Assembly (NCBI GenBank): GCA_003255025.1
Contig: QANY01005731.1
Span: 567,019-631,018 of the forward strand
Direction: 5' to 3'
Length of the DNA: 64,000 nucleotides
DNA from: Datisca glomerata
Taxonomy: Eukaryota > Streptophyta > Magnoliopsida > Cucurbitales > Datiscaceae
Shown here: piece after piece, positions 43,552 to 62,570 of the stretch
Numbering within the stretch: the first letter of the stretch is position 1
Layout: each line of letters opens with the position of its first letter
Position numbers and translations under genes: made by a program
The notes under the pieces: model-generated
Seen by the model: only the letters and a program-made list of their open reading frames with translations
The model's database searches: none
Told to the model about the DNA's origin: nothing

Positions 43552-44640
43552 ATGAGTAGATTATTTATAAGTACTTCTTCTAGTAGTAGTAGATCTACAA
43601 TAACTTCAATACTTAACATAATAGATAAGGAACACTTTGAATTAGCAGATGATCAAGTAGATCATAGGGTATGAAATATACCTAAAATTTCTAATAAAAA
43701 TATTTACAAATTAACATGGTTTGTTGCTTCCTTCAATTCTCAGCATCATGTAAAAACAATTAAAAAAATATATGCTCTTAGGAAAGAGCATGAAACTTGC
43801 CAATTACTTTTCCCTGATGCAATAAAGCATCACATTCAAGAAGGATATAATTTTCTTCATTTTGGTTTAGTCCATATTGGAGTTAAGCCATTCATAAGAA
43901 GAGGCTTAAATACCTCTGTCTTATTAACCTTATGAGATGCAAGATTTACAAATTTTAATGAAAGTATAGCAGATCCTCATATTTTAAAATCATAATTTTA
44001 AGTATTAAAACAGTGGTTACCAAGTCCTAGAAGGTACCTAACCTCTAGCTTTAATCATCAGAATTCATTACAAAGCTACCAAAATAAATATGAATTTTCA
44101 AGCGATCAATAGGAGTCCAAAGAATCAAACCCTATTGATCCAATCTAGCCAAAGTAATGCCAATATTAGAGTTCCAAAAATAATTAGGTGGTCAGATATT
44201 AATTTACTTTCAAATTGGTTTTTAACTAATGAGAGTCAACCTACTCCAATTCAAAGACCGATTGAAGATGTAGATTACATCAATCAGTACATGGATGATA
44301 TTGTTAAAATTAACTTTCAATCATCTTCTAGTTCTAGTCCATAAATTAGGGAGTATAGTCAGTCTAGTACCACTAAGAATTCATTTTTTGGATCATCTAT
44401 TAATAAGGATCAAGATCTTAGGATTCAACAATTAGAACACGAATTAAAAAAATTAAAAATTAAAAATTTAAGACTTAAAGGCATAGCCACAAGTTTCCAA
44501 GTTAGTCAGCCAGTCTTGATAATAAGTCTGAACAATCTGACGAAGTTGAAGCACCCACTGAATCGGATTTTCAAGGAAACCTCCATCCTGTTAATCCTCA
44601 ACTTTTAGTCCTGAATATAGGAACCCTGAGTTAAGAATAT
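43552..44640 (+). pseudogene. Copy A movement protein
   Basis: Moves virus between cells through plasmodesmata. The frame starts at the ATG at 43552 and shows F-L-H-F-G-L-V-H-I-G-V-K-P and R-G-L-N-T-S-V-L-L, the conserved core of 30K-type caulimovirid movement proteins. A Trp codon is TGA near 43672 and an Arg codon is TGA near 43933. Compared with copy C, a segment of about 25 codons is missing after F-N-E-S, just before A-D-P-H-I-L. The C-terminal part is open in 44090-44344 and ends in a Ser-rich run. Confidence 0.85.
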
Positions 44641-44679
44641 AAACCAGATTATGAATGTCTAACCCAATACAATGATGAC

Positions 44680-46775
44680 TCAGCCAATCTAGATAGACGT
44701 AATAGGTTTAGAGATTCACATAATATGGATCAAAGAAAAATCATACTTGCTGAATGGAAAACATTCATGCAAGAATTCAGAGTTCATATATTTTTCCTTG
44801 ATTATATTGAAGATATTTATGAGAAAAATATCAAAATAATTTCAAAATATAAATGGGTCAAGGAAGACTTCAGTGTAGTGTCTGCCAATCATCCTCCTCC
44901 TAAGAAAATTATGATTAATCACAAAAACTTTTTAATCACTGCTTCTCCTTTCAAGATTGCAAAGGAAGAAGAACCAAATAAAAAGGTAGTTGAACAACTC
45001 AATTACATCAACCAGAGTCTAATTATAATAGGTAAACAATTAGTCAAAATTGAGAGCAAGGTTGATGATCTTCATGAATCCAAAACTAAAAAGCTTTGAA
45101 ATAAAAATATTTAATAAATCTTTCAGATAAAATAACTTTGAATATTGTTCCCATTAATAAACAACTTGATAAAATGCTTTAATAATTAAAAAATAAATCT
45201 GTAGAATCATCTTCTTCTGTTAAGGTTATTAACCAAGACAATAATTCTGAGTGAGATAGTCATAGGATAAAATCCTCCTGAGTCATCCATAGTCAATGAA
45301 TCTTAAAAAATTAACAATATTGAATATACATTTAAAAATTTAGAAATTAATAAATTAGAAAGAAAATGACATAAAAGCCTATGCCGTCAGATATACATAT
45401 TACTGAATCTAATCAATTTTCTGTATCTGGAAAGATTATAAGAATGAAATATTGATGGACTTTCTGAGCATGAAATTCTCAATAAATTGTAAAACATGGC
45501 AATGGTAGCTAACAGCTACATCACTATTCACAATCTGCCTCATACTGAGGTAATCAAACTTTTAGTCACAGGATTCACAGAAATGCTTCATTCTTGGGGG
45601 GAAATATCTCACAAAAGAATCCAAAAATTTCATCCTTTTAGCTGTTAATATTGATGCTGAAGGAACTCCATTTGTTCGCACACAAGATAAGAACAGTCAT
45701 TAGTAATGTCCTAGGTAATATAAACTGTGAGAGTCTAACCTATGGAACAATAATTACTATAATAAAAAACAAGGTTAAAAAATGTGCGTTGATATGAAAA
45801 TCAATAAACAAACTAGAGAAGAAAGTAAAACGGCCAAATACGAATTAGGCAATGTAAACAATATGGTTTACCCTCTATTGCCCATTCCCAGAAAAATAAG
45901 AAAAAATCTCACTTAAGACCTAGAAAATCTCACAAACCCTATAAGAGTAATTACCACAAAAATAGAGATAGAAATTTTGATCAATACTTCTCAAAAAATG
46001 AAAATATTAACAAACGCTTCTCTAAAAATAATAATTTCAACAAAAAATTTAATAAAAAATTTACTGATAAAAGTAAACTTAAATGTTTTAAATGTGGCGA
46101 GAGTGGTCATTTTTTAAATACTTGCCAATTTAAAAATAAAATTAACCAATTAAAAATTTCTGAAGAAGATAAACAAAAATTGTTTAGAATCTTAGAAACA
46201 ATATATTATTATAAGAATGATAGTAAATATTTATGAGAATTTAAATCACATGAATCCTCTGAACATAACTCTTCAAGTTCTGACAATGATTCTCCTAATA
46301 TCACTATGAGGTGTAGGGATGGTTGTTGCCAAAAAATAAATGTCTTAAATAAAAATGAAGAACAAGAAAACCTCTTGTTAGACTTAATTAGTAAAATATA
46401 AAATTCAGAATTAAAACATGAATATCTGGAAAGACTTAGGAAAATAGTTCTAAAGAAAGTAAATACGCAGTCTAATGATAACAACATTGCAAGATTTTCG
46501 CAAACCTTTGAAAAATCCAATAAGGTTAAAGAAAAAGAAGAAGTTACCTTAATGGAACTTAAAAAAGAAATTAAAAATATTAAACTTGAAATAAAAGAAT
46601 TGAAAAATTTAAACACTGAAATAAAAGAAGAATTAAATTTTTTAAAAATAGAAAATTTAATTAATAAACAAGAATATAGTGAACCTAGTAAATTACTAAT
46701 TTCTGATGATGAGGTTGAAGAACCTATTATTAATAGTCAAGATGATGATAACTTCATCTAATAATCACATCAAAA
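44680..46775 (+). pseudogene. Copy A coat protein region with CCHC zinc knuckle
   Basis: An upstream open part (44725-45099) contains E-W-K-T-F-M-Q-E-F and F-F-L-D-Y-I-E-D-I-Y. A frameshifted core around 45490-45700 contains F-T-E-M-L-H-S-W. A lysine/asparagine-rich basic region follows, then the RNA-binding knuckle C-F-K-C-G-E-S-G-H-F-L-N-T-C at 46084-46125, in which all four zinc ligands are present. A coiled-coil-like, K/E/L-rich stretch (46552-46690) and an acidic end follow. Several stops (for example TGA near 46234) interrupt the reading. Confidence 0.8.
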
Positions 46776-46799
46776 TAAAAATATGACACATAATGGTGA

Positions 46800-47140
46800 G
46801 AATAATTATTCAAGATTTTGATTTCACGACAATGGTTCTTGTTGATTCATGAGCAGGTTTGAATTGTATGCAGGAAGGATTAGTTCCAACCAAGTACTTC
46901 AATAAGACAAAAGAATCTTTGTCCTCTACTAATGGTATTTGTATGCATATCAATTATGAAATACCCACAATCCATATTTGTCAAGACAATGTGGTCAATG
47001 GAGTATAATGGAATAAATACCTATGTCATGAATAAACCTATAAAATTCAAATTTCTTTCTTTTCCTCACAATGAAAAGTTCAAAACTTTAAAGGAAAAAT
47101 CAATTTCCAATTCCATAAAATTAATTTCTTGTAAAGAAAA
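46800..47140 (+). pseudogene. Copy A aspartic protease, active site broken and flap deleted
   Basis: V-L-V-D-S is followed by TGA at 46850-46852, where Gly of the D-S-G-A active site belongs. L-N-C-M-Q-E follows. About 35 codons that copies B and C keep (from the S-F-V-L-V-K-N-M part to the L-L-Y-P-F part) are deleted; reading resumes at E-Y-N-G-I-N-T-Y. Confidence 0.8.
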
Positions 47141-47181
47141 ATAATTGTGTTTTTTACAGGATGAATTAAAATTCAATAGAA

Positions 47182-48602
47182 TTGAAGAACAACTTCGAAG
47201 TCCTGCTCTTTGAAATAAAATTTAAAATATTCGAACAAAAAATCCGTAAAGGATTATTATGTTCTAATATTCCTAATGCTTTCTGGCATAGGAAGCAACA
47301 TACTGTCAGTTTGCCTTATATTAAGGGATTTGATGAGAAAAATATCCCAACAAAAACAAGGCCAATTCAGATGAATTCTGATATACCTGAGTTCTGTAAA
47401 AAGAAAAATGTAGAACTTCTCAATAAAAATATCATTAGAATGAGCAAGTCTCCTTGGTCATGCTCGACCTTTTATGTCCAGAAGGCCAGTGCAATTGAAC
47501 GAGGAGTTCCTCGTTTAGTAATCAATTATAAACCCCTTAATATTGTTTTAGAATGAATAAGATATCCAATACCAAACAAAAGGGATTTGAAGATGCAGTG
47601 ATATTCTCTAAGTTTGATATGAAATTTGGATTTTGGCAAATCCAGATAAATGAAAATAATAAGTATAAAAATGCATTTGTAACTTCATTTGGCCATTACG
47701 AATGGAATGTAATGCCCTTTGGTCTTAAAAATGCTCTTAGAGAATTTCAAAATATAATGAATGAAATCTTTGATCAATTTACTGATTTCTCAATTATTTA
47801 TATTGATGATGTGCTCATTTTCTCTAAATCAACATAACAACATTAGAGATATCTTGAATCATTTGCTAAGATAATAAAACAAACTGGTTTATTTATATCT
47901 GCAAATAAAATTAGGTTATTTCAATCTGAGGTTAGATTCCTAGGATTTGAAATACACAATTCTATAACTAAGCCAATTAATAGAGTAATATAATTTGCTG
48001 ACAAATTCTCTAATGAAATCGTAGATAAAACACAGTTGCAAATATCTCTAGGATCTTTAAATTACATGTCTGATTTTTACAATAACTTGAGAATTGACTG
48101 TAAGCCTCTCTTTGACAAGCTTAAAAAGAATCCCCTTCCATGGAAAACTGTCCATACTAAATTAATCAAAAGAATAAAGGCACATGTTAATACACTTCCT
48201 TGTCATGGCATCCCTTCTAATAATTCTTTTAAAATTGTCCAAACTGATGTCTCTGGACTTGGATATGGATGTATCTTATTACAAAAAGTATCTCCAGAAT
48301 CACTTGAACAAATTGTTAGGTTCACATCTGGAATTTGGACCCAATCCCAAGTTAATTATAGTAAAATTAAAAAGGAAATCTTATCAGTTGTTCCGTGCAT
48401 ACAAAAATTTCAGGATGACTTGTTAAATCAAAAGTTTATTTTAAAAAATGATTGTAAATATGCAAAATATGTTTTAGAAAATGATGTTAAAAATACAGAT
48501 TCCAAACATATTTTTGCATGATGGCAATCTATTCTTAGTATTTTTTATTTTGATATTGAGTTTATTAAATGCATTAATAATTCAGTTCCTGACTTCTTGA
48601 CC
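47182..48602 (+). pseudogene. Copy A reverse transcriptase and RNase H
   Basis: Copies the pregenomic RNA into DNA and degrades the template. The N-part is open in 47182-47556 (S-K-S-P-W-S-C, P-R-L-V-I-N-Y-K-P-L-N), the palm in 47553-47837 (F-S-K-F-D-M-K-F-G-F-W-Q-I, W-N-V-M-P-F-G-L-K-N-A). The active-site box Y-I-D-D is intact at 47799-47810. RNase H is open in 48036-48521 with Q-T-D-V-S-G, K-K-E-I-L, N-D-C-K-Y, and then V-P-D-F-L-T-R-E near 48588. Stops occur at 47554, 47837 and near 47990 and 48520. Confidence 0.9.
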
Positions 48603-48603
48603 C

Positions 48604-49780
48604 GTGAATTTTTGCATGGACAACAAGATCAAGATGGAGTCTAGGCCCCACGCCTCAAAGAAGACAATTAAAAGGGAGTCATCGACTCCACAATTGGCCC
48701 TTCTGACCCAAATCAAAGAAGAGCCTTCTGCTCTGAAAAATACCCAAGTGACAATACTAGAGTCCATCAGGCCCAACTACCAATGTGCACTAGTCAACCA
48801 ATTTGACCCATTTACAGTCTCGGAACCCTTTGACCCACAATTGATCATCAACCAACCAATCATCAATTACAAAATGACTTCTCCTTATCACAGGAAAACC
48901 CCCAGTAAAAATTTGTTTTACATAGAACCTCCATTTGCTTATATAAAAAGTCTAATTGAAATAGCGAAAGCTCATTTCCTTCCTGATTCTCATTTTGTCC
49001 CTGGACATATAGATAAAACTCTCAGTTTCTATAGAGATATTCTCTTAGAGACAAAATCAATAAATATCAAACCAATAAACAATTTAGAAGGGGGGATCCT
49101 TTATCATTCATTTTACATTCTAAAAATAATAACCATGGAGGAATGAAACATCCATCCTTCTGGGTTAAAACCCCTTTTAAATAAAAAACAATACAACAAT
49201 TTCTCACTCTTGGTTTTTGAACTTTGATAAGAATTTCAAAGTCAATTTGTCAAAATGGTTTTTAAGATGGTGGTCAATCCACGGACCTATCTTTGAAATT
49301 TTTCCCAATTGAAAAACAACATAATTTTAACTTATTTTTAAAATTATTTAAACTCTTAACAATTGGGGCTCCTTTTCCCCCAATAATTTATTTCATGAAT
49401 AAATATAAAATTCCATGGATTTTGAAGTGGCAGTATGCTATCAAAGATGAAATTCTCACCAGACAATACCACGTTAAATGATAGGACAAGTTCAGTACCC
49501 TAAAATATCTGCTGCCATAAATGATGAGTTTATAAAAACTCAACCACAATTGAAATTACTCAAACCACCTCTAATGGCCCCCTTAAAAATTAAGGAGCCC
49601 AACAGCCAGAATCAACAAGAAAACCAATCTAAACCATCAAATTCTTCTCGAGAATCAAAGCCTACATCAAAACCTTCCCTAAAAGGAAAGACCAAGGCTA
49701 CAAAGTCAAAATACAAGCAGGAGTTAATAAAAATGATGCTCATTCTGCTTTTGAGTTCTTAGAAGAATCGAATCACCTAA
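48604..49780 (+). pseudogene. Copy A last ORF, in the transactivator/viroplasmin position
   Basis: Three overlapping open pieces (48604-49146, 49293-49481, 49478-49762) read as one protein of roughly 380 residues. It has a basic N-part, a P-Y-H-R-K-T-P-S-K block, a W-F-L-R-W-W-S-I-H-G-P block, F-P-P-I-I-Y-F, and I-P-W-I-L-K-W-Q-Y-A, then a Lys/Ser/Pro-rich end. The position after RNase H is where caulimovirids encode the inclusion-body/translation transactivator protein. I do not see a recognised domain, so that role is inferred from position only. Copies B, C and D carry the same ORF. Confidence 0.6.
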
Positions 49781-50258
49781 TTAAAAATTAAAAGAGTCAA
49801 TTGTCCAAGACTCCCTCTTAACAATTAAAGGGAAAATCACATGTTCTCACTCTCTCCTAGTGGGCCCATGATCCCTTTCATGATTCACAGGACCCGTACG
49901 ACAGTGTAAATCTCAATGGTGATGAATAGAAGAAAATAATTCACCTTTGATAAAATGCCAATAAAAGGGACCAAATAATTTGAAGATATGTTACGACCAG
50001 AGCACAATTCAAGGATTAATAATAGTATCTCCACCAGAATGAAACAACGACCAAGACACGAAGACAAGATAACAATTATCAAAGATCTTTGTATTTTTTT
50101 CATTTTGTAATAATTGTACTAGTTGTCCAAAAATTTGGTAACTATTTATACTTTTTACTGTTCTTAGTCAAAAGTAGAAATGTAAAATGTTTTTACTTTT
50201 GTAAAATAGAATAGTTCAGGTAAGTGATGGGTTCCCGGTGAACTCCACTTTTATTGGC

Positions 50259-50266
50259 TATAAATA
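50259..50266 (+). promoter_or_regulatory. Copy A pregenomic RNA TATA box
   Basis: TATAAATA, about 85 bases before an AATAAA signal. The same box is in copy B (minus, 51137-51144) and copy C (minus, 56127-56134). Its position after the last ORF is that of the caulimovirid genomic RNA promoter. Confidence 0.75.
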
Positions 50267-50342
50267 GGTAGCCCTCTCCCATTTATTCTTCAGAACTCAC
50301 TTTTAACTTTTAAACTATTTGAAAGAAAAACTTGTTTTGTGA

Positions 50343-50348
50343 AATAAA
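50343..50348 (+). terminator. Copy A polyadenylation signal
   Basis: AATAAA in the context GAAATAAAGC, downstream of the TATA box as in terminally redundant pregenomic RNAs. Conserved in copy C (minus, 56045-56050); copy B has AACAAA. Confidence 0.65.
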
Positions 50349-50562
50349 GCTTTCTTCTTCTCCCTCTTCTATAAATCTTTCTTCTTCTTTTTTATTCAAC
50401 ATTAATTAGTGAGCGGGAGCACTAATTAATCGTTGCCAATAATTATTGTTTGTGTAAGTTTTAATCTTACAATATAATACAAATTTACTGCTTTTGTGCT
50501 CAATTCTTTCATCTTAATACCCCCTCTCTAATTGTTGAAAAAATACTTGATTCTGCATATTT

Positions 50563-50575
50563 TGGTATCAAAGCC
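50563..50575 (+). other. Pararetroviral primer-binding site (initiator tRNA-Met)
   Basis: TGGTATCAAAGCC differs at one base from the complement of plant initiator tRNA-Met 3' end (TGGTATCAGAGCC). This is the minus-strand DNA primer site of caulimovirids and marks position 1 of the viral genome map. Confidence 0.85.
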
Positions 50576-50866
50576 AAACCTGGTGGGAATAATTAATGTT
50601 TCTACTTCAATTTCTGCATAATTAAACTGTTCACCACCCATTATGGCTGGTTATTGTTATTATTGTTTGTTAATTATTTACATGAATAATTGCTTATATC
50701 TAATCTCACTCTCCGCCCAAGTGGCTGGTTATTCTTACAATTGATTGTTTCTCTTTATTTTTTATTTTTCTAATATGTGCATCTGTTTTATCAGATGCTG
50801 ACATATCAGCTTCTATTTGGTTAGCTTCAGGTACCTCAATAAGACCTCTTAGAGATGTAAATCCTC
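50576..50866 (+). mobile_element. Second viral leader, start of a tandem unit, cut at an inversion
   Basis: Matches the start of copy A, including the AUG-less ORF up to P-L-R-D-V-N-P, then stops at about 50866, where copy B begins in inverted orientation. Here the frame in front of the ORF stays open further upstream (hydrophobic W-L-V-I-L-T-I-D stretch) without any ATG. Confidence 0.8.
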
Positions 50867-51594
50867 GCCTGAGAGATGAGGGTGTTAAGATGCAAGAATT
50901 GAGCACAAAAATAGTAAATCTGTATTATAGTGTAAGATTAAAAACTTATACAAACAGTAATTGTTTGTAACAATTAATTAATGCTCCTGCTCACTAATTA
51001 ATGTTGAAGAAAAAAGAAGGAGAAAGATTTATAGAAGAGGGAGAAGAAGCAAGCTTTGTTTCACAAAATAAGTTTTTCTCTCAAATAGTTTAAGAGTTGA
51101 AAACGAGTTCTGAAGAATAAATGAGAGAGAGCTACCTATTTATAACCAAGGAAAGTGGAGTTCACCGGGAACCCATCATTTATCTGAACTATTCTATTCT
51201 ACAAAAATAAAAATATTTTATATTTCTACTTTTGTTTACTTTTGACTAAAAATAATAAAAGCATAAATAGTTGCCTAATCATTTGAGAACTAGTACAATT
51301 ATTACAGAAAATGACAAATTACAAAGATTCCTTGATAATTGTAATATTGGATTCTTGCGTCTTCATCATTGTGTCTTGAAAAGACTCATTGTGACTATTG
51401 TTGCTTTATGTTGGTGGAGCCACTGTTGTTGTTCCTTGATAATTGCTATCTTGGATTTTAGTGTTTTCATTACTGTTATCTTGAAAGCCATTATGACTTT
51501 GCAGAGACACTATTGCTATGGATTGATAATTGGGTATCATTATAGCCGTTGCATTGGAGGACTGTTATGATATATCTTCAAGATTACTTGATTC

Positions 51595-52880
51595 TTTGAT
51601 TTTGATTACTCCAAATATAGGCATTTCGCTAAAGGTGAATTATTTCTCTTTACTACTAAGACTAATGTTGTCAAATAGGTCCTTTAGTGGTTGAAGGGTA
51701 ATATTTCTAGATGATTGGCCTTTTTGGATTTTTGGTTTGATTGTGAGACTTGACCCTTCAGGTTATCTAGAATCAGAATCGTCATTGTCTTTCAAAATGA
51801 GATGTATTTTCTTTTGGATCAATTTTTTCTCTAATTCAGATTATGGCTCTGTGACTTTTGATTTACCCTTTGAAGAGGGTTTGGATAAATTTAGACTGGA
51901 TAGTTTGATTTGTGGAGCTAGGTAAATGGGCTCACTAGTCTTTAATGCAGATTGGATAAAAGAATTTTCTAGTCTCATAATGGGATGAACACTTGCAAAT
52001 TCATAATTGATGGATGTAATAATTTTTTGGGTATTCAACTTATCTCACCATTAAACATAATACTCTCTGGTGAGAATTTCATTTTCAACCGAGTATTTCC
52101 ATTTCAAAATTCAAGGTATTTTGTATTTTATCAGAAAATAAATTATTTAGAGAAAGGAGACCTCAATTGGTGAGAGCTTGTAAACCTTTAAAAATAAATT
52201 GAAATATTGTTGTAAATCAATTGAAAAAAATTCTAAGGTAAGACCATGAATGGAGCACCATTTTAAGAACCAATTTAGAAATTGATTTAGAAATTGTTAT
52301 CAAAATTTAAAAACCAAAACTGATAAAAATCACTATTTTGATGCAAGAAAATCCTGGGCTATGCATCAATATAGTCAAAATAATTATATTATCTTTTATT
52401 TGAAAGCATTTTTGAACTTGAAGGATGGATTCTCCAATCCTCCATAATTATGATTCTGAAGATAGACAAAGAATGGTAAATGATTCTTTCCTCAGAATTT
52501 CTGATTGGTCTAATTTTTTATGGGTTCTGTTTCTAAGAGAAATTCTCAGTAGAAATAGAGATTTTTTCTATTGTGTCCAGGGACATAGTGGAATTTAGGA
52601 ATGAAATGAGATTTGACAAATTGAGCAGAATCCTTCAAATGAGCAAATGAATGCTCAATATGAAAGAGATTTTCGCTGGCCATTTTTTGAAAATCAAATG
52701 ATGATTTCTTGTATTTTGAAATTGATTGGGCATCAAAGGATATCGAGAATGGGTCAAATTGGTTGATCAGAGTTGACTGGTGATTAGGTCTGTTGGACCC
52801 AAGTATTATTGATTGAGCTTGGTTAAGAGTAGAAGACTCCTCTTTGGTTTGAGTTTAAGGGTCAATTATTGAGTCAAAGA
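51595..52880 (-). pseudogene. Copy B last ORF (transactivator position), degraded
   Basis: The segment after AlkB matches copy A in order: R-P-N-H-Q-S-T-L-I-N-Q-F-D-P-F near 52760, H-F-I-P-K-F-H-Y-V-P-G-H near 52600, then a region with many stops, and a C-terminal open part 51841-52038 with Lys/Ser-rich end. Similarity to A begins within about 60 bases of the AlkB stop codon. Confidence 0.65.
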
Positions 52881-52909
52881 CTCTTCTATTGTTGAACCAT
52901 TCATCATTT

Positions 52910-53395
52910 TCACATGTTTTTTAAAGTGATGCCGATTCTTCTGGTTAAGGATTCTACAGCATGCCTATGACCTTTTTGAAATCCATCAGGCATGATGAAG
53001 AAAGTTCCTTCCAGCATAAAAAATTCTTTCATTGTTTTGTCTGAAAATTCAATTTTGAAAATTGCTTGTCCTAATAAGTTTACAGTTAAAATTTTGCTGT
53101 TATCATAACAAATTTCATTATCTTTGTGAAAACCTATTTTTTCACCTTTTTCGTACAATTGAATTTGTTGCATTGAAGTCATGCTTCAACCCAACATATT
53201 CTAAAATTTTATTTAATGTATTAATCCAGTCATTTCTTGGATATTCAAATCCATTATGACCATAGTCAATGAATGAGGATTTTGAACAAAATGCGGCTGC
53301 ACTGCCATTGTGCTTCTTAATTTTGAAAGAATTTTTATTAAGTATTCTAGGTTCTACCTTTCCAAATTCTAAGAGGTCAAATTCCTCTATTGGAA
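52910..53395 (-). pseudogene. Viral-type AlkB (2OG/Fe(II) dioxygenase) domain in copy B, frameshifted
   Basis: AlkB proteins remove methyl groups from nucleic acid using Fe(II) and 2-oxoglutarate; in plant RNA viruses the domain is part of the replication polyprotein or P1. Here it spans two overlapping minus-strand frames. The N-part (end of 53142-53636) has A-A-F-C-S-K, D-Y-G-H-N-G, and N-D-W-I-N. The C-part (52910-53182) has I-Q-L-Y-E-K-G-E-K-I-G-F-H-K-D-N-E, C-Y-D-N-S-K-I-L-T-V-N-L, M-P-D-G-F-Q-K, and H-R-H-A-V, ending R-R-I-G-I-T-L-K. Iron ligands are His (53126-53128), Asp (53120-53122) and, 55 codons later, His (52961-52963); Arg codons at 52937-52942 fit the 2OG-binding Arg. A single frameshift lies in the overlap 53142-53182. 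The ending T-L-K replaces the usual T-F-R. The wording is like flexivirus AlkB, not like a plant ALKBH gene, and no introns are seen. Confidence 0.85.
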
Positions 53396-54110
53396 AATTC
53401 TGGAATGATACCCTATAAAATATTACAAGTAAGAGAATCAGACATTTAATCATTAATATATTGGATAAATTAAATATTAAAATCAGTATTGCTAAGAATG
53501 GGTTATTACCTAGCAAAAATTTTGGAATTAATTTCAAAACATGTTTTGTAGACTTATTAATCAAAATAAATTGTATGATTTGATCAATTATTTTAATAAT
53601 GAAATAATAAATTTCAAATTCTAGAAATCTATTCATAAATTTTGTAGAGATAATTAAATTATTTTGTTTTATTGTCTTCGAAACAATTTAAAGTATTTTC
53701 AATATTGTTTAACATATTGGCTAATGCAAACAATCAAGAAATGCAACTAGTATCGTCTAATAAGTATTATTAATGCAATCAATCGAGAAATTAGTAAATC
53801 TATTAAAAAATTTAATCATTATATTCTGAAATTTACTTGGAGTAAATCTAAGATCAAATGAAATTATTTTTCATTTATAATGATAAAATATAATCTTGTA
53901 TTTCTCAGTCTTATTTATCTGGATTTACCAACATTCAGATTTTATGCTAAACTCAGAGGATACATCAGTATTTCTAAGTATGTTGATTAAATCCCTTCTA
54001 TTTGATATTGAATATTTTATTCATTCCAACATTTGTTAAGGGGCTTACAATTAATTACTAAACAAGGAACTTCTCGTTTAATGATTTGATTTTGAAAAGC
54101 ATGCTCTTTA
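53396..54110 (-). pseudogene. Copy B reverse transcriptase, heavily decayed
   Basis: L-V-I-N-C-K-P-L-N is readable near 54040. The palm region is shredded; the Y-I-D-D box has become C-I-N-N near 53740. F-L-E-F-E-I near 53615 corresponds to F-L-G-F-E-I of copy A, followed by faint similarity through the connection domain. RNase H catalytic blocks present in A and C are not found before AlkB begins. The high A/T content makes the 53430-53636 frame look hydrophobic, but this is not a membrane protein. Confidence 0.7.
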
Positions 54111-54181: not shown

Positions 54182-54535
54182 TTATTTCAAGGTCTTCAAT
54201 TTCTCATTCTGAGAAAAAAGAAAGAAAATTGAATTTACAGGTTCATTCAAGGGATAAGTAATTATCCCATCATACTCTGTGGTAAAAGGATACAACAGAG
54301 AAATGAATGGTAAACCTAAAATAATTTTGTCAACCATATTTTTTACTAAGAGAAACGATGTTTCAAAACATACATCGTCTTGGCAAATATGAACTTTGAG
54401 GATTTCATAATTGATATGCATACGAGTACCATTCGCAGAGGACAAAAATTATTTTATCTTCTTGAAGTACTTGGTCAGAACTAGTCATTCTTACATACAA
54501 TTCAAATCTGCTCCTCAATAAAAAAGAGTCATTGT
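54182..54535 (-). pseudogene. Copy B aspartic protease
   Basis: Open part 54182-54445 has H-I-N-Y-E, K-I-I-L-G-L-P-F-I, and L-L-Y-P-F-T-T-E-Y-D-G-I, the part deleted in copy A. Upstream, the active-site Asp codon reads TAT (54518-54520) and the next codon is a stop. Confidence 0.8.
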
Positions 54536-55165
54536 CATGAAATCATAATCTTAAATAATTATTCTGACCATTATGTTGCCATTTTTTTATTTTGATGTGA
54601 TTAAGTATTTGGATGAAGTTATCATCGTCTCGACTGTTAATAATAGGTTCTCAACCTCATTATCAAAAATCAGTATTTTACTAGGTTCACTAGATTCTTG
54701 TTTATTAATTAAATTCTCTATTTTTAAAAGGTTTAATTCTTCTCTTATTTCCATGTTTGAATTTTTTAATTCTTTTATTTCAAGTTTAATATTTTAATTT
54801 CTTTTTGAAGTATCTGTAAGTTCACTTTTTTTCTTTTCTTTTATCCCTATTGAATTTTTCAAGGGTTTGCGAAAGGCTTGCAATATTGATATTAATAGAC
54901 TTAAATTTTTTTTTCTTTAGAATTACTTTCACAAGTCTTTCCAGATATTTCTGTTTTAATTATGGATTTTTAATTTTGCTAATTAAGTTTAACAAGAGGT
55001 TTTCTTGTTCTTCATTTTATTTATCCCTACACCCCATAGTGATGTTAGAAGAATCACTGTCGGAAGTTATAGAGTTATATTTAGAGCATTCAGGTGATTC
55101 AAATTCTTCTAAACTTTCACTACAGTCTCATAATAATCTATTTATAAATCTTGCATCTCGGGATT
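54536..55165 (-). pseudogene. Copy B coat protein C-terminal region
   Basis: Corresponds to copy A 46200-46770: I-D-Y-Y-E, an acidic Ser-rich part, then the Lys/Glu/Leu-rich coiled-coil-like stretch. The zinc knuckle and everything before it are missing because of the deletion that joins this part to the leader. Confidence 0.7.
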
Positions 55166-55345
55166 TACATCTTTAAGAGGTCTTACTGAGGTACCTGAAA
55201 CTAACCAAATAATAGCTGATACGTCAGCTTCTGATAAAACAGATTCACATATTAGAAAAATAAATAATACAGAAAAATAATCAACTGTAAGAATAACCAG
55301 TCACTTGGACGGAGAATGAGAATAGATATAAGTAATTATTCATGT
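55166..55345 (-). mobile_element. Copy B leader and AUG-less ORF fragment
   Basis: On the minus strand it reads through the leader into S-A-S-I-x-W-L...P-L-K-D-V-N-P and then joins coat protein sequence. Similar in length and content to the leader at 50670-50864. It meets fragment D head-on at about 55345. Confidence 0.75.
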
Positions 55346-55760
55346 AATATTTGATATTAAGTTTATTAAAGGCATTGATAATTCAGTTCCTGACTTCTTG
55401 ACCCGTGAATTTTTGCAGGGGCAACAAGATCAAGATGGGGTCTAGGCTTCAGGCCTCTAAGAAGACAATTAAAGGGGAGTCCTCGACTCCACAATTGGCT
55501 CTTCTGGCCCAAATCAAAGAAGACCCTTCTGCTCTGAAAAATACCTAAATGACAATACTAAGGTCCATCAGGCCCAACTACCAATCTACACTAGTCAACC
55601 AATTTGACCCATTTGTAGTCTACAAGCACTTTGACCCACAATTAGTCATCAACCAACCAATCGCCAATTATAAAAGGTCTTCTCCTTATCACAGGAAAAC
55701 CCCCAGTAAAAAATTGTTTTACATAGAACCTCCATTTGCTAATCTAAAAAGCCCAATTGA
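55346..55760 (+). mobile_element. Pararetrovirus fragment D: end of RNase H and start of last ORF
   Basis: Plus-strand match to copy A 48549-48965 with few differences (V-P-D-F-L-T-R-E-F-L-Q-G, then Q-S-T-L-V-N-Q-F-D-P-F). The open frame 55549-55830 starts in the last ORF and runs past the junction into unrelated sequence. It is flanked by inverted viral sequence on both sides. Confidence 0.85.
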
Positions 55761-55783
55761 GAGGGGTATTCCCCACCAAGTTT

Positions 55784-55796
55784 GGCTCTGTTACCA
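55784..55796 (-). other. Copy C primer-binding site
   Basis: On the minus strand TGGTAACAGAGCC, one mismatch to the initiator tRNA-Met complement and a different mismatch from the one in copy A. It lies just inside the junction with fragment D. Confidence 0.8.
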
Positions 55797-56699
55797 AAGG
55801 ATACAGATCAAGTATAATTTAAGCAATTAGAGTGAGGGTAATAAGATGTAAGAATTGAGCACAAAAACAGTAAATCTATTTTAAAGTGTAAGATTAAACA
55901 GTAAAAAGTGATGTATTGAGGTGCAAGATTCAAAACTTACACATCCAGCTTTATTGGCAATGATTAATTAGTGATTCCTCTCACTAATTAATGTTGAAGG
56001 AAAAAGAAGAAGAAAGATTTACAGAAGAAGGGGAAGAAGAAAGCTTTATTTCACAAAACAAGTTTTAGCTCTCAAATAGTTAAGAGTTGAAAATGAGTTC
56101 TCAAGAACAAATGGGAGAGGGCTACCTATTTATAGCCAAGGAAAGTGGAGTTCATTAGAAATCCATATCTTACTTGAACTATTTTATTTTACAAAAATTA
56201 AAACATTTTACATTTCTACTTTTGACTAACAACAGTAAAAAGTATAAATAGTTGCCTAATTTTTTGACTAGTACAATTATTACAAATGACAAATTACAAA
56301 GATCTTTGATAATTGCTATCTTTGTTTTCGTGTCTTGGTCGTTGATTCATTCTGGTGGAGATACTGTTATTGATCCTTGCGTTGTGCTCTGGTCATAACA
56401 TATCTTCAAATTATTTGGCCCTTTTTGTTGGCATTTTTTCAATGGTGAATTATTTTCTTATATTCATCACCACTAAGATTTACACTATCGACGGGTCTTG
56501 TGAATCCTGAAAAGGATCATGGGCCCACTGGGGGAGATTGCGAACATGTGATTTCCCTTTAATTATTGAGAGGGAGTCTTAGAAGATTGACTCTTTTCAT
56601 TTTTAATTGGGTAATTCGATTCTTCTGAGGACTCAGAGTCATAATCTGTATTGTCTTCAAGAAGAAGGAGCATCCTTTGTATTAACTCCTACTTTGATT

Positions 56700-57860
56700 T
56701 CGACTTTTTAGCCTTGGTCTTTCCTTTTAGGGAAGGTTTTAATGTAGGCTTTGATCCTCGAGAAGAATTTGATGATTCAGATTGGTTTTCTTGTGGATTC
56801 TAGTTGTCGGGCTCCTTAATTTTTAGGAGGGCCATTGGAGGTGGTTTGTGTAATTTCAATTGTGGGTGAGTTTTTGTAAACTCATCATGCATGGCAACGG
56901 ATATTTTTAGGGTACTAAACTTGTCCCACCATTTAACGTAGTATTGTCTGATGAGGATTTCATCTTCGATAGCATACTGCCACTTCAGAATCCATGGAAT
57001 TTTATATTTATTCATGAAATAAATTATTGAGGGAAATGGAGCCTCAATTGTTGAGGGTTTAAGTAAACAAATAAGTTAAAATTCTGTCGTATTTCAATTG
57101 GAAAAATTTCAAAGATAGGACCGTGGATTGACCACCATCTTAACAACCATTTTGGAAAATTGGCTTTGAAAATCTTATAAAGTTCAAAAAACCAAGAGTG
57201 AGAAAATTCACTATTTTGATGTAAGAAAATTATTTGCCAAGCATCAATACAGTCAAAATAGTTGTATTATTTTATCTAAAGGGGTTTTAACCGTGAAGGA
57301 TGGATGTTCCATTCCTTCATGGGTATTATTTTTAGAATGTAGAATGAATGATACATGATCTTCCTTTCTGAACTGTTTATTGGTTTGATATTTATTGATT
57401 TTGTCTCTAAGAGAATATCTATGTAGAAACTGAGGGTTTTATCTTCATGTCTAGGAACAAAATGAGATTTAGGAAGGAAATGAGCTATCGTTATTTCAAT
57501 TTGGATTTTTAGATTAGCAAATGGAGGTTCTATGTAAAACTGATTTTTACTGTGGGTTTTCCTGTGATAATGATAAGACCTTTTGTAATTGGCGATTGGT
57601 TGGTTGATGACCAATTGTGGGTCAAAGTGCTTGTAGACTGCAAATGGGTCAAATTGGTTGACTAGTGTAGATTGATAGTTGGGCCTGATGGATCCTAGTA
57701 TTGTCATTTATGTATTTTTTAGAGCAGAAGGGTCTTCTTTGATTTGTGCCAGAAGAGCCAATTGTGGAGTCGATGACTCCCTTTAATTGTCTTCTTAGAG
57801 GCCTGGGGCCTAGACCCCATCTTGATCTTGTTGTCCCTGTAAAAATTCATGGGTCAAGAA
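56700..57860 (-). pseudogene. Copy C last ORF (transactivator position)
   Basis: Open parts are 57276-57707 (R-P-N-Y-Q-S-T-L-V-N-Q-F-D-P-F, A-H-F-L-P-K-S-H-F-V-P) and 56800-57015 (I-P-W-I-L-K-W-Q-Y-A, W-W-D-K-F). Between them are frameshifts around the W-W block. The last part is Lys/Ser-rich as in copy A. Confidence 0.65.
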
Positions 57861-59160
57861 GCCAGGAATTGAATTATCAATGCTTTTAATAAACTTAATA
57901 TCAAAATAAAAAATACTAAGAATAGATTGCCATCGTGCAAAAATCTACTTGGAAGCTATATTTTTAACATCATTTTCTAAAACATATTTTGCATATTTAT
58001 AATTAATTTTTAAAAGAAACTTTTGATTCAACAAGTCATCCTGAAATTTTTGTATGCACAGAACAACTGGATAAGATTTCATTTTTAATTATACTATAAT
58101 TGACTTGGGATTGTGTCAAAGTTCTAGATGTGAACCTAACAATTTGTTCAGGTGATTCTGGAGAGACTTTTTGCAATAAGATACATCCATATCCAAGTTT
58201 AGAGGCATCAATTTGGACAAGTTTAGAAGAATTATTAGTAGAGATGCCAAGACAAGGAAGTGTCTTAACATGTGCCTTAATTCTTTTGATTAAATTAGCA
58301 TGGACAGTTGTCCATGGAAGGGGATTCTCAAGTTATTGTAAAAAACTTATATGTAATTTAAAAATCCTAAAAATATTTGCAACTGTGATTTATCTAGGAT
58401 TTCATTGGAGAATTTGTCAGCAAATTGTATTACTCTATCAATTGGCTTAGTTATAGAATAGTGTATTTCAAATCCTAGGAATCTAACCTTAAATTTGAAA
58501 TAACCTAATTTTATTTGCAGAGATAACTAAATCATTTTATTTTATTATCCTAGCAAATGTTGGTCTATTGATTTAGAGAAAATGAGCACATCATCAATGT
58601 AAACAATTGAGAAATCAGTCAATTGATTAAAAATTTCATTCTTTATGTTTTGAAATTCAATAGGAGCATTTTTAAGACCAAAGGGCATTACATTCCATTC
58701 GTAATGGCCAAATGGAGTTACAAATGTAGTTTTATACTTATCATTTTCATTTATTCGGATTTGCCAGAATTCAGATTTCATATCATACTTAGAGAATACC
58801 ATTGCATCTCCAAGTCTATTATCAAATCCCATTTTATTGGTATTGGATATCTTATCCATTCCAAAACATTATTAATGGGCTTATAATTGATTACTAAATG
58901 AGAACTTCTTGTTCAATTTCACTGTTCTTCTAGACATAAAAGGTCGAGCAGGACCAAAGAGATTTACTCATTCTAATGATATTTTTATTGAAAAGTTCTA
59001 CAATTTTCTTTTTACAGAACTCAAGCATTTCAGAATTCATCTGAATTGGTCTTGCATTTGTTGGGATATTCTTCTCTTCAAATCCCGTAATGTAAGGCAG
59101 ACTGGCAATATGTTGCTTCCTATGTTAGAAAGCATTAGGAATATCAGAACATAATCATTT
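57861..59160 (-). pseudogene. Copy C reverse transcriptase and RNase H
   Basis: The palm is open in 58545-58859: F-S-K-Y-D-M-K-S-E-F-W-Q-I, E-W-N-V-M-P-F-G-L-K-N-A, and Y-I-D-D at 58590-58601 (intact). RNase H follows at 57900-58450 in interrupted frames with the same block order as copy A, ending H-E-F-L-Q-G near 57845. No AlkB-like sequence lies between RNase H and the last ORF. Confidence 0.88.
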
Positions 59161-59353
59161 ACAGATTTTTGTTCAAATATTTTAAATTGTTTTGAAGAAC
59201 AGGATTTTGAAGTTGTTCATCAATTCTCTTGAATTTTAACTCATCCTGTCAAAAACACAACTATTTTTTTACAAGAAATCAATTTAATTTTTATGGAATT
59301 GGAAATTGATTTTTCCTTTAAAGTTTCCAACTTTTCAGTACAAGAAATTAATT

Positions 59354-59690
59354 TTATGGAATTGGAAATTTGAATTTTATAGGTTTATTCATGACATAGG
59401 TATTTATGCCATCATACTCCGTTGAAAACATATATAACAGTGCAATAAATGATAAACCTAAAATAATTTTGTCAGTCATATTTTTTACTAAGACAAATGA
59501 TGTTTTGAAACATATATTGTCTTGACAAATATGAACTATGAGTGTTTCATAATTGATATGCATATGAGTGCCATTGGTAGATGACACTGATTCTTTTATC
59601 TTCTTAAAGCACTTGGTTGGAACTAGTCATTCCTGCATACAATTCAAATCTGCTCCTGAACCAACAAGAGTCATTGTCGTGAAATTAAAA
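59354..59690 (-). pseudogene. Copy C aspartic protease
   Basis: T-L-V-G-S-G-A-D-L-N-C is read at about 59640-59670: the catalytic Asp codon is GGT (Gly) at 59660-59662. A stop follows M-Q-E. The C-part (59354-59587) keeps S-F-V-L-V-K-N-M, K-I-I-L-G-L and E-Y-D-G-I-N-T-Y. Confidence 0.82.
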
Positions 59691-60176
59691 TCTTGAATAA
59701 TTATTCTGACCATTATGTGTCATTTTTTTATTTTGATGTGATTAAGTATTTGGATGAAATTATCATCGTCTTGACTGTTAATAATAGGTTCTTCAACCTC
59801 ATTATCAGAAATTAGTAATATACTAGGTTCACTTAGATACTTGTTTATTAATTAAATTCTCTATTTTTAAAAGATTTAATTCTTATTTTATTTCAGTGTT
59901 TGAATTTTTTAATTTTTTTTATTTCAAGTTTAATATTTTAAATTTCTTTTTTAAGATCCTATAAAGTGACTTCTTTTTCCTTTTTTTTAACCTTATTGAA
60001 TTTTTTAAGGGTTTGCGAAAGACTTGAAGTATTGTTATTATTAGACTTAGTATTTTCATTTTTTTAAATTACTTTCCTAAGTTTTTCCAGATATTCCTGT
60101 TTTAATTCTGGATTTTCAATTTTACTAATTAAGTCTAACAAGAGGTTTTCTTGTTCTTCATTTTTATTTAGAACAT

Positions 60177-62570
60177 TTATTTTTGGCAACAACTATCCCT
60201 ACACCTCATAGTGATGTTAGAAGAATCATTATCAGAAGTTGAAGAGTTATATTCAGAGGATTTAGGTGATTCGAATTCTCCTAAATCTTCATTATGATTC
60301 TCATAATAATCTATTGTTTCTGAGACTCTAACCAATTCTTGTTTATCTTCTTCAGAAATTTTTAATTGGTTAATTTTATTTTTAACTTGGTAAGTATTTG
60401 AAAGATGACCACTATGGCCACATTTAAAACATTTAAGTTTACTTTTATCAATAGATTTTTTATTAAATTTTTTGTTGGAATTATTATTTTTAGAGAAGCG
60501 TTTGTTAATATTTTTATATTTTGAGAAGTACTGATCAAAATTTTTATTTATATTTTTGTTGTAATTTCTCCTATAGGGTTTGTGAGACCTTCTAGGACTT
60601 AAGTGAAATTTTTTTCTATTTTTCTGGGATGGGGCAATAGAGGATACATCATATTGCTCACAGAAATTGTCTAATTCATATTTGACAGTTTTACTTTCTT
60701 TTTTAATTTGCTTATAAATTTTCATATCATGCACATTTTTAAACCTTCTTTCTGTATTATAGTAATTATTGTTCCATAAGTTAGACTATCATAGTCTATA
60801 TTATCGAGGTCGTTACTAAGGACTGTTCTTATTTTGTGTATGAACAAATTGGGTAATCCATTAATAAATTTTTTTTTTCAAAATGGTTGATTACTATCAT
60901 CCTTTGACATAACTCTGGATAATAATATATTTTTATACCAATTGAAATCACTTAGGGTTGGACACCTAAGATTAATAATTGATCAGAAATACGTGAAGTA
61001 ATATTACTTGGCGTTCCAATGAGATGTTCAATTATTGTGTAAAGAAGTGTATTGATGGCATCATGCATTGTTTCCTGATTTTCACCAATAATTAAGGTCC
61101 CTTCAGCATCAATCTTAACTGCTAAAATGATGGAATTTTTTGATTCTTCTGTGAAATATTTTTTCCACCAGGAATGAAGAATTCCTGTGAATCTTGTGAC
61201 TAAAAGTTTGATTACCTCATTGTGAGGCAAAGTATGTGTGGTAATATAGTTGTTACCTCTCATTCCCATGCACTGTAAATTGTTGAGAAACCTTCTGCTC
61301 AGAAAGTTCATCAATATTCCATTTGTATAATTTCTCTACAGACACAGAAAATTGATTAACTAAAGAATTTTCAGAAATTTGAATATCAGGAGGAATAAGC
61401 TTTTTAGGCAATTTCCTTTCTAATTTATTAATTTCTAAATTTTTAAGTGATTCTTCAATATTATTAATGTTTAAAAATGTATTTATCGTGGATGATTCAT
61501 AGGTTGACTCTGACTTATGGCTTTCTAAATCTGAACTATTGTCTTGATTGATTACTTTTAATTCCTGAAGTATTTCATCAATCTGTTTATTAAGAGGAAC
61601 AATATTTAGAGTGGTTTTGTTAGAGAGATTCATTAAAGGTTTTTCCTCCAGAGTTTCACTATATTCAGGTTTTGAAGATCATCAACCTTATTCTTAATTT
61701 TGTCTAATTGTTTACCTATTACAATTGGACGTTGATTGGTATAATTGAGTTGTTCAACTAATTTTTTATTTAGTTCCTTTTCCTTTGAAGTCTTGAAAGG
61801 AGAAACATTGATTAAAGAATTTCTATGGTTAATGTCCTTAACAGAGGATGATTTATTAGTTTCTAAATTTTTTAATTTTTCTTCAACTTTGTTAACTTTT
61901 GAAGATTCATCAATTGTGAAAGATTCATAAGTTGATTCTAACCAATGGCTTTCTAAATTTCGACTACTGTCATTCAATTCTTGAAGTTTATCATTAGTAA
62001 ATTTTTCAAATTCTGAACAATTGTTTTGGTTATCAATCCTACCAAAATAAGAAAAGTCATTAGTTTTTAATTCTTTAATGTTTCTTCAATTTTATTAATA
62101 TTTGAAGGTTCATTGATTGTGGAAGATTCATAGGTAGATTCTAACCTATGACTTTTTAATTTAGAGGTACTGTCTTAGTCAATAACCTTAACAAGTGATT
62201 TAATTTCTAAATATTTGGATGGTTCTTCAGTATTTTTTTAAGATTCATAAATTGTAGATGTCTCATAGGTAGATTATATAACCTATGTCTATCTGATTCT
62301 GAGATATTGTCTCAAAATTACAAAATTTTTAAGTATTTTTTCATCAAGAGTTTTCTCATAATGAACTCGGAAGGATTCAATAAATTCTTTATTAGGTTGA
62401 GAATTTTATATTTAATTAGGATTTTTCAGGTAGTGGATGACTAATAGTTACTACACTGGAGTCTTCCTTGACCCTTTTATATTTTGAATTTACTTTGATA
62501 TTTTTCTCGTAAATATCATCGATATAATCAAGGAAAAACATACCAACTCTAAATTCTTGCATGAATGTCT
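60177..62570 (-). pseudogene. Copy C coat protein region
   Basis: Open parts in order are 61633-61977 (repetitive E-S-T-Y-E-S-F/S acidic stretch, then N-K-K-L-V-E-Q-L-N-Y), 61253-61633, 60952-61314 with the capsid-core wording F-T-G-I-L-H-S-W-W-K-K-Y-F-T-E-E-S, and 60177-60734 with a basic N/K-rich region and the knuckle C-F-K-C-G-H-S-G-H-L-S-N-T-Y. The last zinc ligand (Cys) is Tyr here. An acidic, Ser-rich tail follows, ending C-R-D-S-C-C. Confidence 0.82.

What the first reader, a model, noticed from the sequence alone, without database searches (positions are those of the whole stretch)
52910..53395. A viral-type AlkB demethylase domain inside an endogenous pararetrovirus
Copy B carries, on its coding strand and between RT and the last ORF, a domain with G-F-H-K-D-N-E, I-L-T-V-N-L, M-P-D-G-F-Q and H-R-H-A-V, ending in an Arg-containing strand. 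The HxD...H...R set and 55-codon spacing are those of AlkB, and the wording is that of plant RNA virus AlkB. I know AlkB from flexiviruses and a few other RNA virus groups; I am not aware of an established one in Caulimoviridae, though I cannot check. It implies gene transfer from an RNA virus to a reverse-transcribing DNA virus, and possibly a role on methylated pregenomic RNA.
Basis: partly seen in the sequence, partly recalled or inferred. Interest (0 to 1): 0.92.

Follow-up and report, generated by a model that had tools for sequence, protein, structure and literature searches.

The report
AlkB gene in a helper-dependent pararetrovirus
A fossil plant DNA virus that has lost its own replication enzyme carries, in many copies across this plant genome, a selectively conserved AlkB-type enzyme that probably removes methyl marks from RNA, which the searches made here did not find reported for this virus family.

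Summary
The AlkB domain is real, and it belongs to a multi-copy element. The window copy is broken into two frames (minus strand, 53420-53142 and 53185-52910). Its catalytic piece passes one Pfam cut-off; better preserved genome copies score higher (PF13532, 2.1e-10 at best).

In the window's own plant genome the domain recurs: 2371 candidates, 150 scored, all 150 matching. In 30 loci examined (window copy included) the florendovirus-type last ORF always follows. None of the 30 shows RNase H, and none of 12 readable copies keeps the RT motif YxDD. Thirty RNase H-bearing loci show the opposite: AlkB 0 of 30, YIDD 26 of 30.

AlkB therefore sits in a non-autonomous, component-B-like florendovirus (MP-CP-AP-dead RT-AlkB-ORF2) whose leader and movement protein resemble those of an RT-bearing partner. 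AlkB is under purifying selection (omega 0.28, as the protease; dead RT 0.60), and its iron and 2-oxoglutarate ligands persist in 27 of 30 copies.

Most likely it demethylates viral RNA for an element replicated by its partner. Origin from an RNA virus could not be tested. I found no report of AlkB in Caulimoviridae in the searches made.

The parts
52910..53185 (-). AlkB C-terminal, catalytic piece of copy B (HxD 53128-53120, HRH 52969-52961, Arg 52939-52937)
   Evidence: PF03171 4.4e-5, PF13532 2.2e-4; PHROG 21963 7e-6; Foldseek ranks 1-20 are AlkB or ALKBH2, none at E<=1e-3; residue places
53142..53420 (-). AlkB N-terminal piece of copy B, in another frame
   Evidence: No family hit below E 0.05 on its own and none with the viral-contig AlkB profile; matches the N-part of AlkB in 29 of 30 genome loci (one of these is this copy itself)
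53434..53528 (-). last ~30 codons of RNase H, just before AlkB
   Evidence: blastn to copy A 48499-48597, 70.7%
53568..54082 (-). degraded reverse transcriptase remnant; motif C reads CINN, not YIDD
54182..54448 (-). aspartic protease region of copy B
   Evidence: blastn to A and C; no Pfam protease hit, assigned by position and recalled from the family's gene order
54372..55142 (-). end of coat-protein region (zinc knuckle side, coiled coil) of copy B
   Evidence: 81% to A and C by blastn, 85-88% by mafft
55161..55347 (-). leader fragment of copy B; MP and most of CP are missing in this copy
   Evidence: 90% to A 50678-50864
51997..52883 (-). ORF2 (florendovirus-type last ORF) of copy B
   Evidence: 66.6% nt to copy A; ORF2 relatives in Prunus, 3 of 6 hits named
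50872..51375 (-). intergenic/promoter region of copy B
   Evidence: 84.8% to A 50041-50529
43296..50865 (+). copy A: RT/RNase H-bearing sister element, no AlkB; 120-bp terminal redundancy; tRNA-Met-like primer site 50563-50574, TATA-like 50259-50267
55912..64000 (-). copy C: second RT/RNase H-bearing sister element (cut by the window end), no AlkB
   Evidence: MP PF01107 6.2e-15, RT, RNase H; blastn; tblastn of the AlkB pieces finds no second copy in the window
55350..55830 (+). fragment D: RNase H end plus ORF2 start of an A-type copy
   Evidence: 90-94% to A and C over 55350-55700; ORF 55549-55830

Best explanation
The window shows one decayed copy of a high-copy, non-autonomous florendovirus-like pararetrovirus. 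SHOWN, in the samples examined: its copies have the order MP-CP-protease-dead RT remnant-AlkB-ORF2, without RNase H and without the RT catalytic motif; AlkB is co-inherited and under purifying selection; RT/RNase H-bearing sister copies lack AlkB and are most alike to it in leader and MP. INFERRED: it was replicated in trans by the RT of the partner; its polyprotein was cut by its own protease, releasing an AlkB(-ORF2) protein; this Fe(II)/2-oxoglutarate enzyme removed methyl groups (m6A, or m1A/m3C damage) from the pregenomic RNA or host RNAs, protecting the RNA template from methylation-dependent restriction before or during reverse transcription. The RNA-demethylase step itself I put at about 0.6.
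For: AlkB identity: PF13532 in 18 of 20 and PF03171 in 17 of 20 aligned pieces (18 genome, 2 window); hhalign to six viral-contig AlkBs 96.5%; AlkB/ALKBH2 fill Foldseek ranks 1-20. Copy number: 150 of 150 scored of 2371 candidates. Architecture in 30 loci (L009 is the window copy): ORF2 30 of 30, AP 24, RT-like remnant 21, RNase H 0; AP, AlkB and ORF2 matches in one frame in 6 of 30; one natural open frame of 902 codons runs AP to ORF2. Upstream pieces of 10 copies: CP and zinc finger 10 of 10, MP 8 of 10. RT motif C YxDD 0 of 12 readable, motif A Asp 4 of 25 (8 of the 25 gapped there). Converse set of 30 RNase H loci (L049 is copy A): AlkB 0 of 30, YIDD 26 of 30. Selection: omega AlkB 0.28 (0.26-0.30), protease 0.28, ORF2 0.425, RT remnant 0.60; AlkB half outside the search query 0.36; shifted-frame values for AlkB 0.65 and 1.09. 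HxD, second H and first Arg all present in 27 of 30. AlkB distances follow AP+ORF2 distances, r 0.74, 0 of 2000 permutations, 29 copies. Median nt identity to A/C: leader 84.0% and MP 87.4% against 69.6% RT and 67.7% ORF2. AlkB and RNase H copies lie within 10 kb in 18 pairs (0.66 expected if uniform).
Against: No activity, transcript or protein evidence. The loci are the top 30 of 150 scored for each query, so conservation is biased upward, mostly in the queried C half (omega 0.21 against 0.36). ORF2 is not well kept in these copies: 4.57 in-frame stops per copy, 2 of 28 stop-free, against 15 of 29 for AlkB. The last Arg of RxxxxxR is kept in only 23 of 30. The RT remnant's omega is below 1 and lowest off-frame (0.50), so the method carries bias. 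A scan of all plus frames of the remnant for a YxDD-like string found one, FLDD in L020, beside CINN. Leader identity (84%) is below the >90% of published component pairs. Viruses cluster in genomes anyway, so the uniform null for neighbours is weak. No homologue outside this genome was found, so breadth is unknown.
Confidence: 0.8

Rival explanations
1. A piece of a flexivirus-like RNA virus replicase (non-retroviral integrated sequence) landed by chance in one decaying pararetrovirus copy.
For: A flexivirus replicase-like sequence, related to the 5' half of citrus leaf blotch virus (whose replicase has an AlkB domain), is reported in cucumber (PMC3136472, passages seen).
Against: AlkB between remnant or protease and ORF2 in the loci examined, ORF2 after it in 30 of 30, co-inheritance, purifying selection; 150 of 150 scored matches in the genome.
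Confidence: 0.02
2. AlkB was captured from a host ALKBH mRNA by the element, as in orchid Ty3/Gypsy elements, not from an RNA virus.
For: Precedent PMC9289625 (orchid elements with an ALKBH5-like domain, demethylase in vitro; parts 1-4 of 7 seen).
Against: A profile of 20 pieces finds no solved chain, ALKBH included, at E<=1, which argues against a recent capture from a well-known ALKBH class. The search for host ALKBH genes in this genome did not complete.
Confidence: 0.3
3. AlkB is a relic: it was useful to an ancestral virus but has drifted neutrally since the element became a genomic repeat, spreading only as passenger DNA.
For: The window copy is frameshifted and many scored matches hold a stop; host copies decay.
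Against: Omega 0.28, equal to the protease and far below the RT remnant in the same loci; 15 of 29 copies without an in-frame stop in AlkB against 3 of 23 for the RT remnant.
Confidence: 0.12
4. A 2OG oxygenase with a non-nucleic-acid substrate (for example protein hydroxylation).
For: PF03171 and PF13532 are broad; TIGR00568 (E. coli-type AlkB) only 13.4 bits against a cut-off of 231 for the 91-aa piece; cupins with the same barrel appear lower in the fold list.
Against: The second Arg, which PMC544882 (passages seen) links to AlkB-specific substrate binding, is kept in 23 of 30 copies; AlkB/ALKBH2 top the fold list; AlkB profile match.
Confidence: 0.1

Closest known systems
Florendovirus component B of bipartite genomes (Vitis, Oryza, Sorghum; Geering 2014, PMC4241990, passages seen)
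   Same: MP-CP-AP polyprotein, RT and N-terminal RNase H missing, C-terminal ORF2 extension, intergenic region and MP closely similar to the RT-bearing component, mixed insertions
   Different: The passages seen describe no AlkB; here AlkB lies between the RNase H end and ORF2, an RT remnant persists in many copies, leader identity is lower (84% against >90%), and the RT-bearing copies (C in the window) keep MP and CP
Non-autonomous pararetroviruses eRTBVL2/ePVCVL of grasses (Chen 2017, PMC5491270, abstract and one section seen)
   Same: No RT/RH, partner sharing the intergenic region, a domain in place of RT/RH (called SFKTE; ORF2 of L038 holds a similar SFKT string)
   Different: No AlkB in the section seen
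AlkB domains of plant RNA viruses (Alpha-/Betaflexiviridae, Closteroviridae, Secoviridae, Potyviridae; PMC11784248, PMC9452765, PMC544882, passages seen)
   Same: HxD, H, RxxxxxR; a domain inside a viral polyprotein
   Different: There the carriers are RNA viruses with the domain in replicase or P1; here a reverse-transcribing DNA virus, next to ORF2. Sequence relationship not tested
Phalaenopsis Ty3/Gypsy Tat elements with ALKBH5-like ORF2 (PMC9289625, parts 1-4 of 7 and passages seen)
   Same: A reverse-transcribing plant element with an AlkB domain; demethylates m6A in vitro
   Different: 25-kb LTR retrotransposon with the usual Gypsy domains; ALKBH5-type; found only in Phalaenopsis among the 121 genomes of that survey, which started from RT and so would miss RT-less components

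Membership tests
AlkB (2OG-Fe(II) oxygenase) | HxD ... H ... R iron and 2OG ligands | tested here: met
   All four in 27 of 30 genome copies; present in the window copy
AlkB (2OG-Fe(II) oxygenase) | second Arg of RxxxxxR | tested here: inconclusive
   Arg in 23 of 30 copies, Lys 3, Ile 2, Gly 1, gap 1; not Arg in the window copy
AlkB (2OG-Fe(II) oxygenase) | family HMM above curated cut-off | tested here: met
   PF13532 41.2 bits against 31.2 and PF03171 33.9 against 23 for L025; window piece PF03171 24.2 against 23, PF13532 21.9 against 31.2
AlkB (2OG-Fe(II) oxygenase) | double-stranded beta-helix fold | tested here: met
   8 strands, Foldseek top rank 2fdk AlkB, E 1.4e-3, TMq 0.59, none at E<=1e-3; model only pLDDT 63 and aided by viral-contig AlkB rows
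E. coli-type AlkB equivalog TIGR00568 | curated cut-off | tested here: not met
   13.4 bits against 231.05, on the 91-aa piece only
plant RNA virus AlkB | groups with flexi-/poty-/closteroviral AlkB in a tree | not testable with these tools
   No plant RNA virus AlkB could be fetched: IMG/VR scans gave large viral contigs (presumably phages) or nothing
host ALKBH capture | groups inside plant ALKBH genes | tested here: inconclusive
   No solved chain matched the profile at E<=1; host family search not answered
Caulimoviridae, florendovirus-like | 30K movement protein, CCHC coat protein, RT and RNase H, ORF2 right after RNase H in another frame | tested here: met
   PF01107 6.2e-15, zf-CCHC, RVT_1, RNase H in copies A and C; frames; 30 of 30 RNase H loci followed by ORF2; ORF2 relatives in Prunus
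Caulimoviridae, florendovirus-like | tRNA-Met primer site downstream of the promoter | tested here: met
   TGGTATCAAAGC at 50563, one mismatch, about 300 nt after a TATA-like box; six matches with up to 2 mismatches in the window, 2.9 expected, so weak on its own
Caulimoviridae, florendovirus-like | RT tree position | not tested
   No reference RTs at hand
bipartite component B / non-autonomous pararetrovirus | RT and N-terminal RNase H absent or dead in many copies | tested here: met
   RNase H 0 of 30, YxDD 0 of 12 readable
bipartite component B / non-autonomous pararetrovirus | shared intergenic region (>90%) and MP (>87%) with an RT-bearing partner | tested here: inconclusive
   Leader 84.0% (8 copies) and MP 87.4% (9), well above RT 69.6% and ORF2 67.7%, but the leader is below the published >90%
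bipartite component B / non-autonomous pararetrovirus | actual trans-replication by the partner | not testable with these tools
   Inference from copy number and dead RT

The most novel reading that the evidence does not exclude
A division of labour in a two-component plant DNA virus: the RT-bearing component replicates both, and the RT-less component supplies a packaged AlkB eraser that strips methyl marks from both pregenomic RNAs in trans. The helper-dependent partner would then be a mutualist rather than a parasite, and RNA methylation a real barrier to reverse-transcribing elements in plants.
Probability: 0.3. Interest if true: 0.93.

Novelty: new variant of a known kind. Interest (0 to 1): 0.82.

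Why it matters
Among mobile elements of plants, AlkB domains are reported, in what I could search, for RNA viruses and for one orchid retrotransposon lineage. A conserved, selected AlkB in a pararetrovirus extends the pattern to reverse-transcribing DNA viruses and suggests that RNA methylation restricts them too. That the domain is kept on the replication-defective partner and was not found on the RT-bearing one gives a natural contrast: what does a helper-dependent element need an RNA eraser for? The question can be tested with one expressed domain and with direct RNA sequencing.

Tried and rejected
Chance ORF: rejected by HMM results; open-frame length alone would not have sufficed. Single accidental insertion, NIRV or assembly artefact: rejected by genome-wide synteny. 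LTR retrotransposon instead of pararetrovirus: copy A has a 120-bp terminal redundancy, but the primer site lies upstream of the 3' repeat and only about 85 nt separate RNase H from ORF2 in most of the 30 RNase H loci, leaving no room for an integrase there, so a copy of a circular genome fits better. I did not search the rest of the copies for integrase.

Led nowhere: viral contigs with the AlkB and RT pieces; protein database with the AlkB piece and with a piece of an open copy, residues 1-190, lengths about 188-597 only (125 candidates, none at E<=0.1); solved structures by sequence; fixed-gap AlkB pattern; hhalign of the window N piece against viral-contig AlkBs (nothing). Of the 8 stretches, 7 read as AlkB; 6 were used, one near-duplicate (L007) was left out. 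Paper searches with AlkB or demethylase and Caulimoviridae, pararetrovirus or florendovirus terms, or on viral AlkB or florendovirus ORF2, listed no report of AlkB in a caulimovirid; for only 20 of 8,787 and 15 of 10,525 papers were listed. The 2024 review PMC11784248 lists virus families with AlkB and does not contain 'caulimo'. Preprints and most subscription papers were not searchable. No m6A report for cauliflower mosaic virus appeared among the 10 papers listed of 83.

Full report
WHAT IS IN THE WINDOW. The 43-64 kb part holds three related pararetrovirus copies and a fragment. Copy A (+, 43296-50865) and copy C (-, from about 55912 to the window end) show, between them, MP (copy C), CCHC coat protein, RT, RNase H and a last ORF. 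Copy B (-, 55347-50872) is shorter and more decayed: leader, end of the coat region, protease region, an RT remnant, the last ~30 codons of RNase H, then the AlkB domain, then the last ORF and the intergenic region. MP and most of CP are missing in copy B. AlkB occupies the place that in copy A is the ~80 nt between the blastn ends 48597 (RNase H side) and 48676 (last ORF). At the 5' end AlkB stands in the +1 frame relative to RNase H, the same relation the last ORF has in copy A.

THE DOMAIN IS AN AlkB. The 91-codon catalytic piece reaches PF03171 (24.2 bits, cut-off 23) and matches PF13532 below its cut-off, PHROG 'alkylated DNA repair' (7e-6) and, weakly, TIGR00568. In the same plant genome better copies exist: of 20 aligned pieces (18 genome, 2 window), 18 match PF13532 (best 2.1e-10) and 17 PF03171. 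Profile comparison with six AlkBs from viral contigs gives 96.5%. A model of the 91-residue piece (pLDDT 63, eight strands) finds AlkB and ALKBH2 in ranks 1-20, none at E<=1e-3, with cupins below. That model used viral-contig AlkB rows in its alignment, so it is supporting, not independent, evidence.

IT IS A GENOME-WIDE ELEMENT. The search of the window's own assembly (678 Mb) gave 2371 first-look candidates; 150 were scored and all 150 match at E<1e-35. The best thirty loci were examined; L009 is the window copy. The last ORF follows AlkB in 30 of 30, the protease precedes it in 24 of 30, an RT-like remnant is seen in 21 of 30, and RNase H in 0 of 30. In six (L011, L025, L028, L031, L033, L038) protease, AlkB and last-ORF matches share one frame, in L031 with a shift near the end; same frame does not mean stop-free. 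In L025 a natural open frame of 902 codons runs through. Pieces upstream of 10 copies show CP and zinc finger in 10 of 10 and MP in 8 of 10, at 79-90% amino-acid identity to copy C in six of these and lower in two. In one copy (L039 with L025) MP, CP and the protease-AlkB-ORF2 frame are in the same genomic frame; I did not read it through.

THE CARRIER CANNOT REPLICATE ITSELF. Of 30 AlkB loci, 12 are readable at RT motif C and none has YxDD; 6 of the 12 read xINN and others are close to it, shared by divergent copies, which points to an inactivation older than their spread. A free scan found one FLDD string, in L020, beside CINN. The motif A Asp is kept in 4 of 25, with 8 of the 25 gapped there. 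The converse sample, the best 30 loci found with RNase H (6111 candidates, 150 scored; L049 is copy A), shows AlkB in 0 of 30, YIDD in 26 of 30, and the last ORF after RNase H in 30 of 30. Both samples are the best-scoring 30 of each list, so rare mixed forms may be missed.

PARTNERSHIP. AlkB-type copies are closest to the RT-bearing type in MP (median nt identity 87.4%, 9 loci) and leader (84.0%, 8), intermediate in CP, zinc finger, coiled coil and protease (79-82%), and distant in RT remnant (69.6%, 12), ORF2 (67.7%, 27) and its later part (72.2%, 27); only loci with at least half of a segment in one alignment were counted. For the window copies, A and C are 87-91% alike in the eight segments compared, while B drops from 82-90% in noncoding and coat parts to 67-74% from the protease to ORF2. 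This resembles what is described for bipartite florendoviruses (PMC4241990) and for non-autonomous grass pararetroviruses that share regulatory sequences with a partner (PMC5491270), though the leader is below the >90% of the former. Among the two lists of 150, 18 AlkB-RNase H pairs lie within 10 kb, the window pair included and two pairs sharing one RNase H copy, against 0.66 expected if uniform. Clustering of such repeats in general makes this null weak.

SELECTION. Pooled NG86 omega over copies: AlkB 0.28 (bootstrap 0.26-0.30, 29 copies), protease 0.28 (23), ORF2 0.425 (28), tail 0.53 (25), RT/RNase H remnant 0.60 (23). Without the window copy and split, the AlkB half outside the search query has 0.36 and the queried half 0.21, so ascertainment lowers the latter. 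Read in shifted frames AlkB gives 0.65 and 1.09, the protease 0.79 and 1.05, ORF2 0.76 and 0.77, and the remnant 0.79 and 0.50, that is, no preference for its own frame. Stop-free copies: protease 17 of 23, AlkB 15 of 29, remnant 3 of 23, ORF2 2 of 28 (4.57 stops per copy), so ORF2 is kept worse than its omega suggests. HxD, second H and first Arg are all present in 27 of 30; the second Arg is present in 23 of 30. AlkB distances follow AP+ORF2 distances (r 0.74, 0 of 2000 permutations, 29 copies), so the domain was inherited with the element. AlkB nucleotide distances among the 30 copies run from 0.023 to 0.239, median 0.166, with a young and an older group.

MECHANISM. Inferred: the element was transcribed from a promoter like its partner's, reverse-transcribed by the partner's enzyme, and used its own protease to release AlkB, alone or with ORF2. 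As an Fe(II)/2OG dioxygenase the protein would remove methyl groups from pregenomic RNA or host transcripts. Viral AlkBs are reported as RNA demethylases (van den Born 2008, cited in the papers seen, not read), and the orchid Gypsy AlkB removes m6A in vitro (PMC9289625). That the substrate is RNA, that the mark is m6A, and that the partner profits are not shown.

NOVELTY. Searches of the open library listed no caulimovirid AlkB. A 2024 review listing virus families with AlkB does not mention caulimoviruses, and the florendovirus paper describes ORF2 as without homology to known domains. The Gypsy survey (PMC9289625) scanned consensuses from 121 genomes, 423 of them classed as endogenous Caulimoviridae, and reports the domain only in Phalaenopsis; it started from RT, so an RT-less component would be missed. 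So this is, as far as I could search, the first AlkB in Caulimoviridae, and the first seen on a replication-defective component. The kind (non-autonomous florendovirus component) and the domain are both known; their union is new.

LIMITS. The plant is unnamed. No other plant genome could be searched. The florendovirus label rests on gene order and ORF2, not on an RT tree. Plant RNA-virus AlkBs and host ALKBH genes were not available for a tree, so the direction of transfer is open.

Noticed in passing
window 23500-33300 (-): A Ty3/Gypsy-like element: ORF translations look like integrase (27387-26767) and RT (29535-29248), names recalled and not searched; repeated flanks around 23.5-24.5 kb and 32.0-33.0 kb, with arrays of 22-nt and 55/58-nt units at 24109-24396, 25737-26463 and 32540-32849.
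   Followed up: no
window 12456-12848 (-) and 35409-35738 (+): Exon-like ORFs that look like a UDP-GlcNAc pyrophosphorylase and a PLATZ zinc-binding protein (recalled, not tested), so the virus cluster lies near host genes.
   Followed up: no
window 55350-55830 (+): An A-type RNase H-end/ORF2 fragment abuts the head of copy B in the opposite orientation: a compound, rearranged insertion.
   Followed up: partly
L012:100-264: A second, weaker AlkB C-piece match (46%) lies about 1.1-1.3 kb upstream of the main AlkB in this locus, perhaps an older nested copy.
   Followed up: no
L057:1501-2674: RNase H occurs twice in tandem (77% and 75% to copy A) in one RT-bearing copy.
   Followed up: no
L025:244-2952: The RT remnant stays open between protease and AlkB though over the copies it shows no amino-acid selection preferring that frame, as if it served only as a linker in the polyprotein.
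   Followed up: partly
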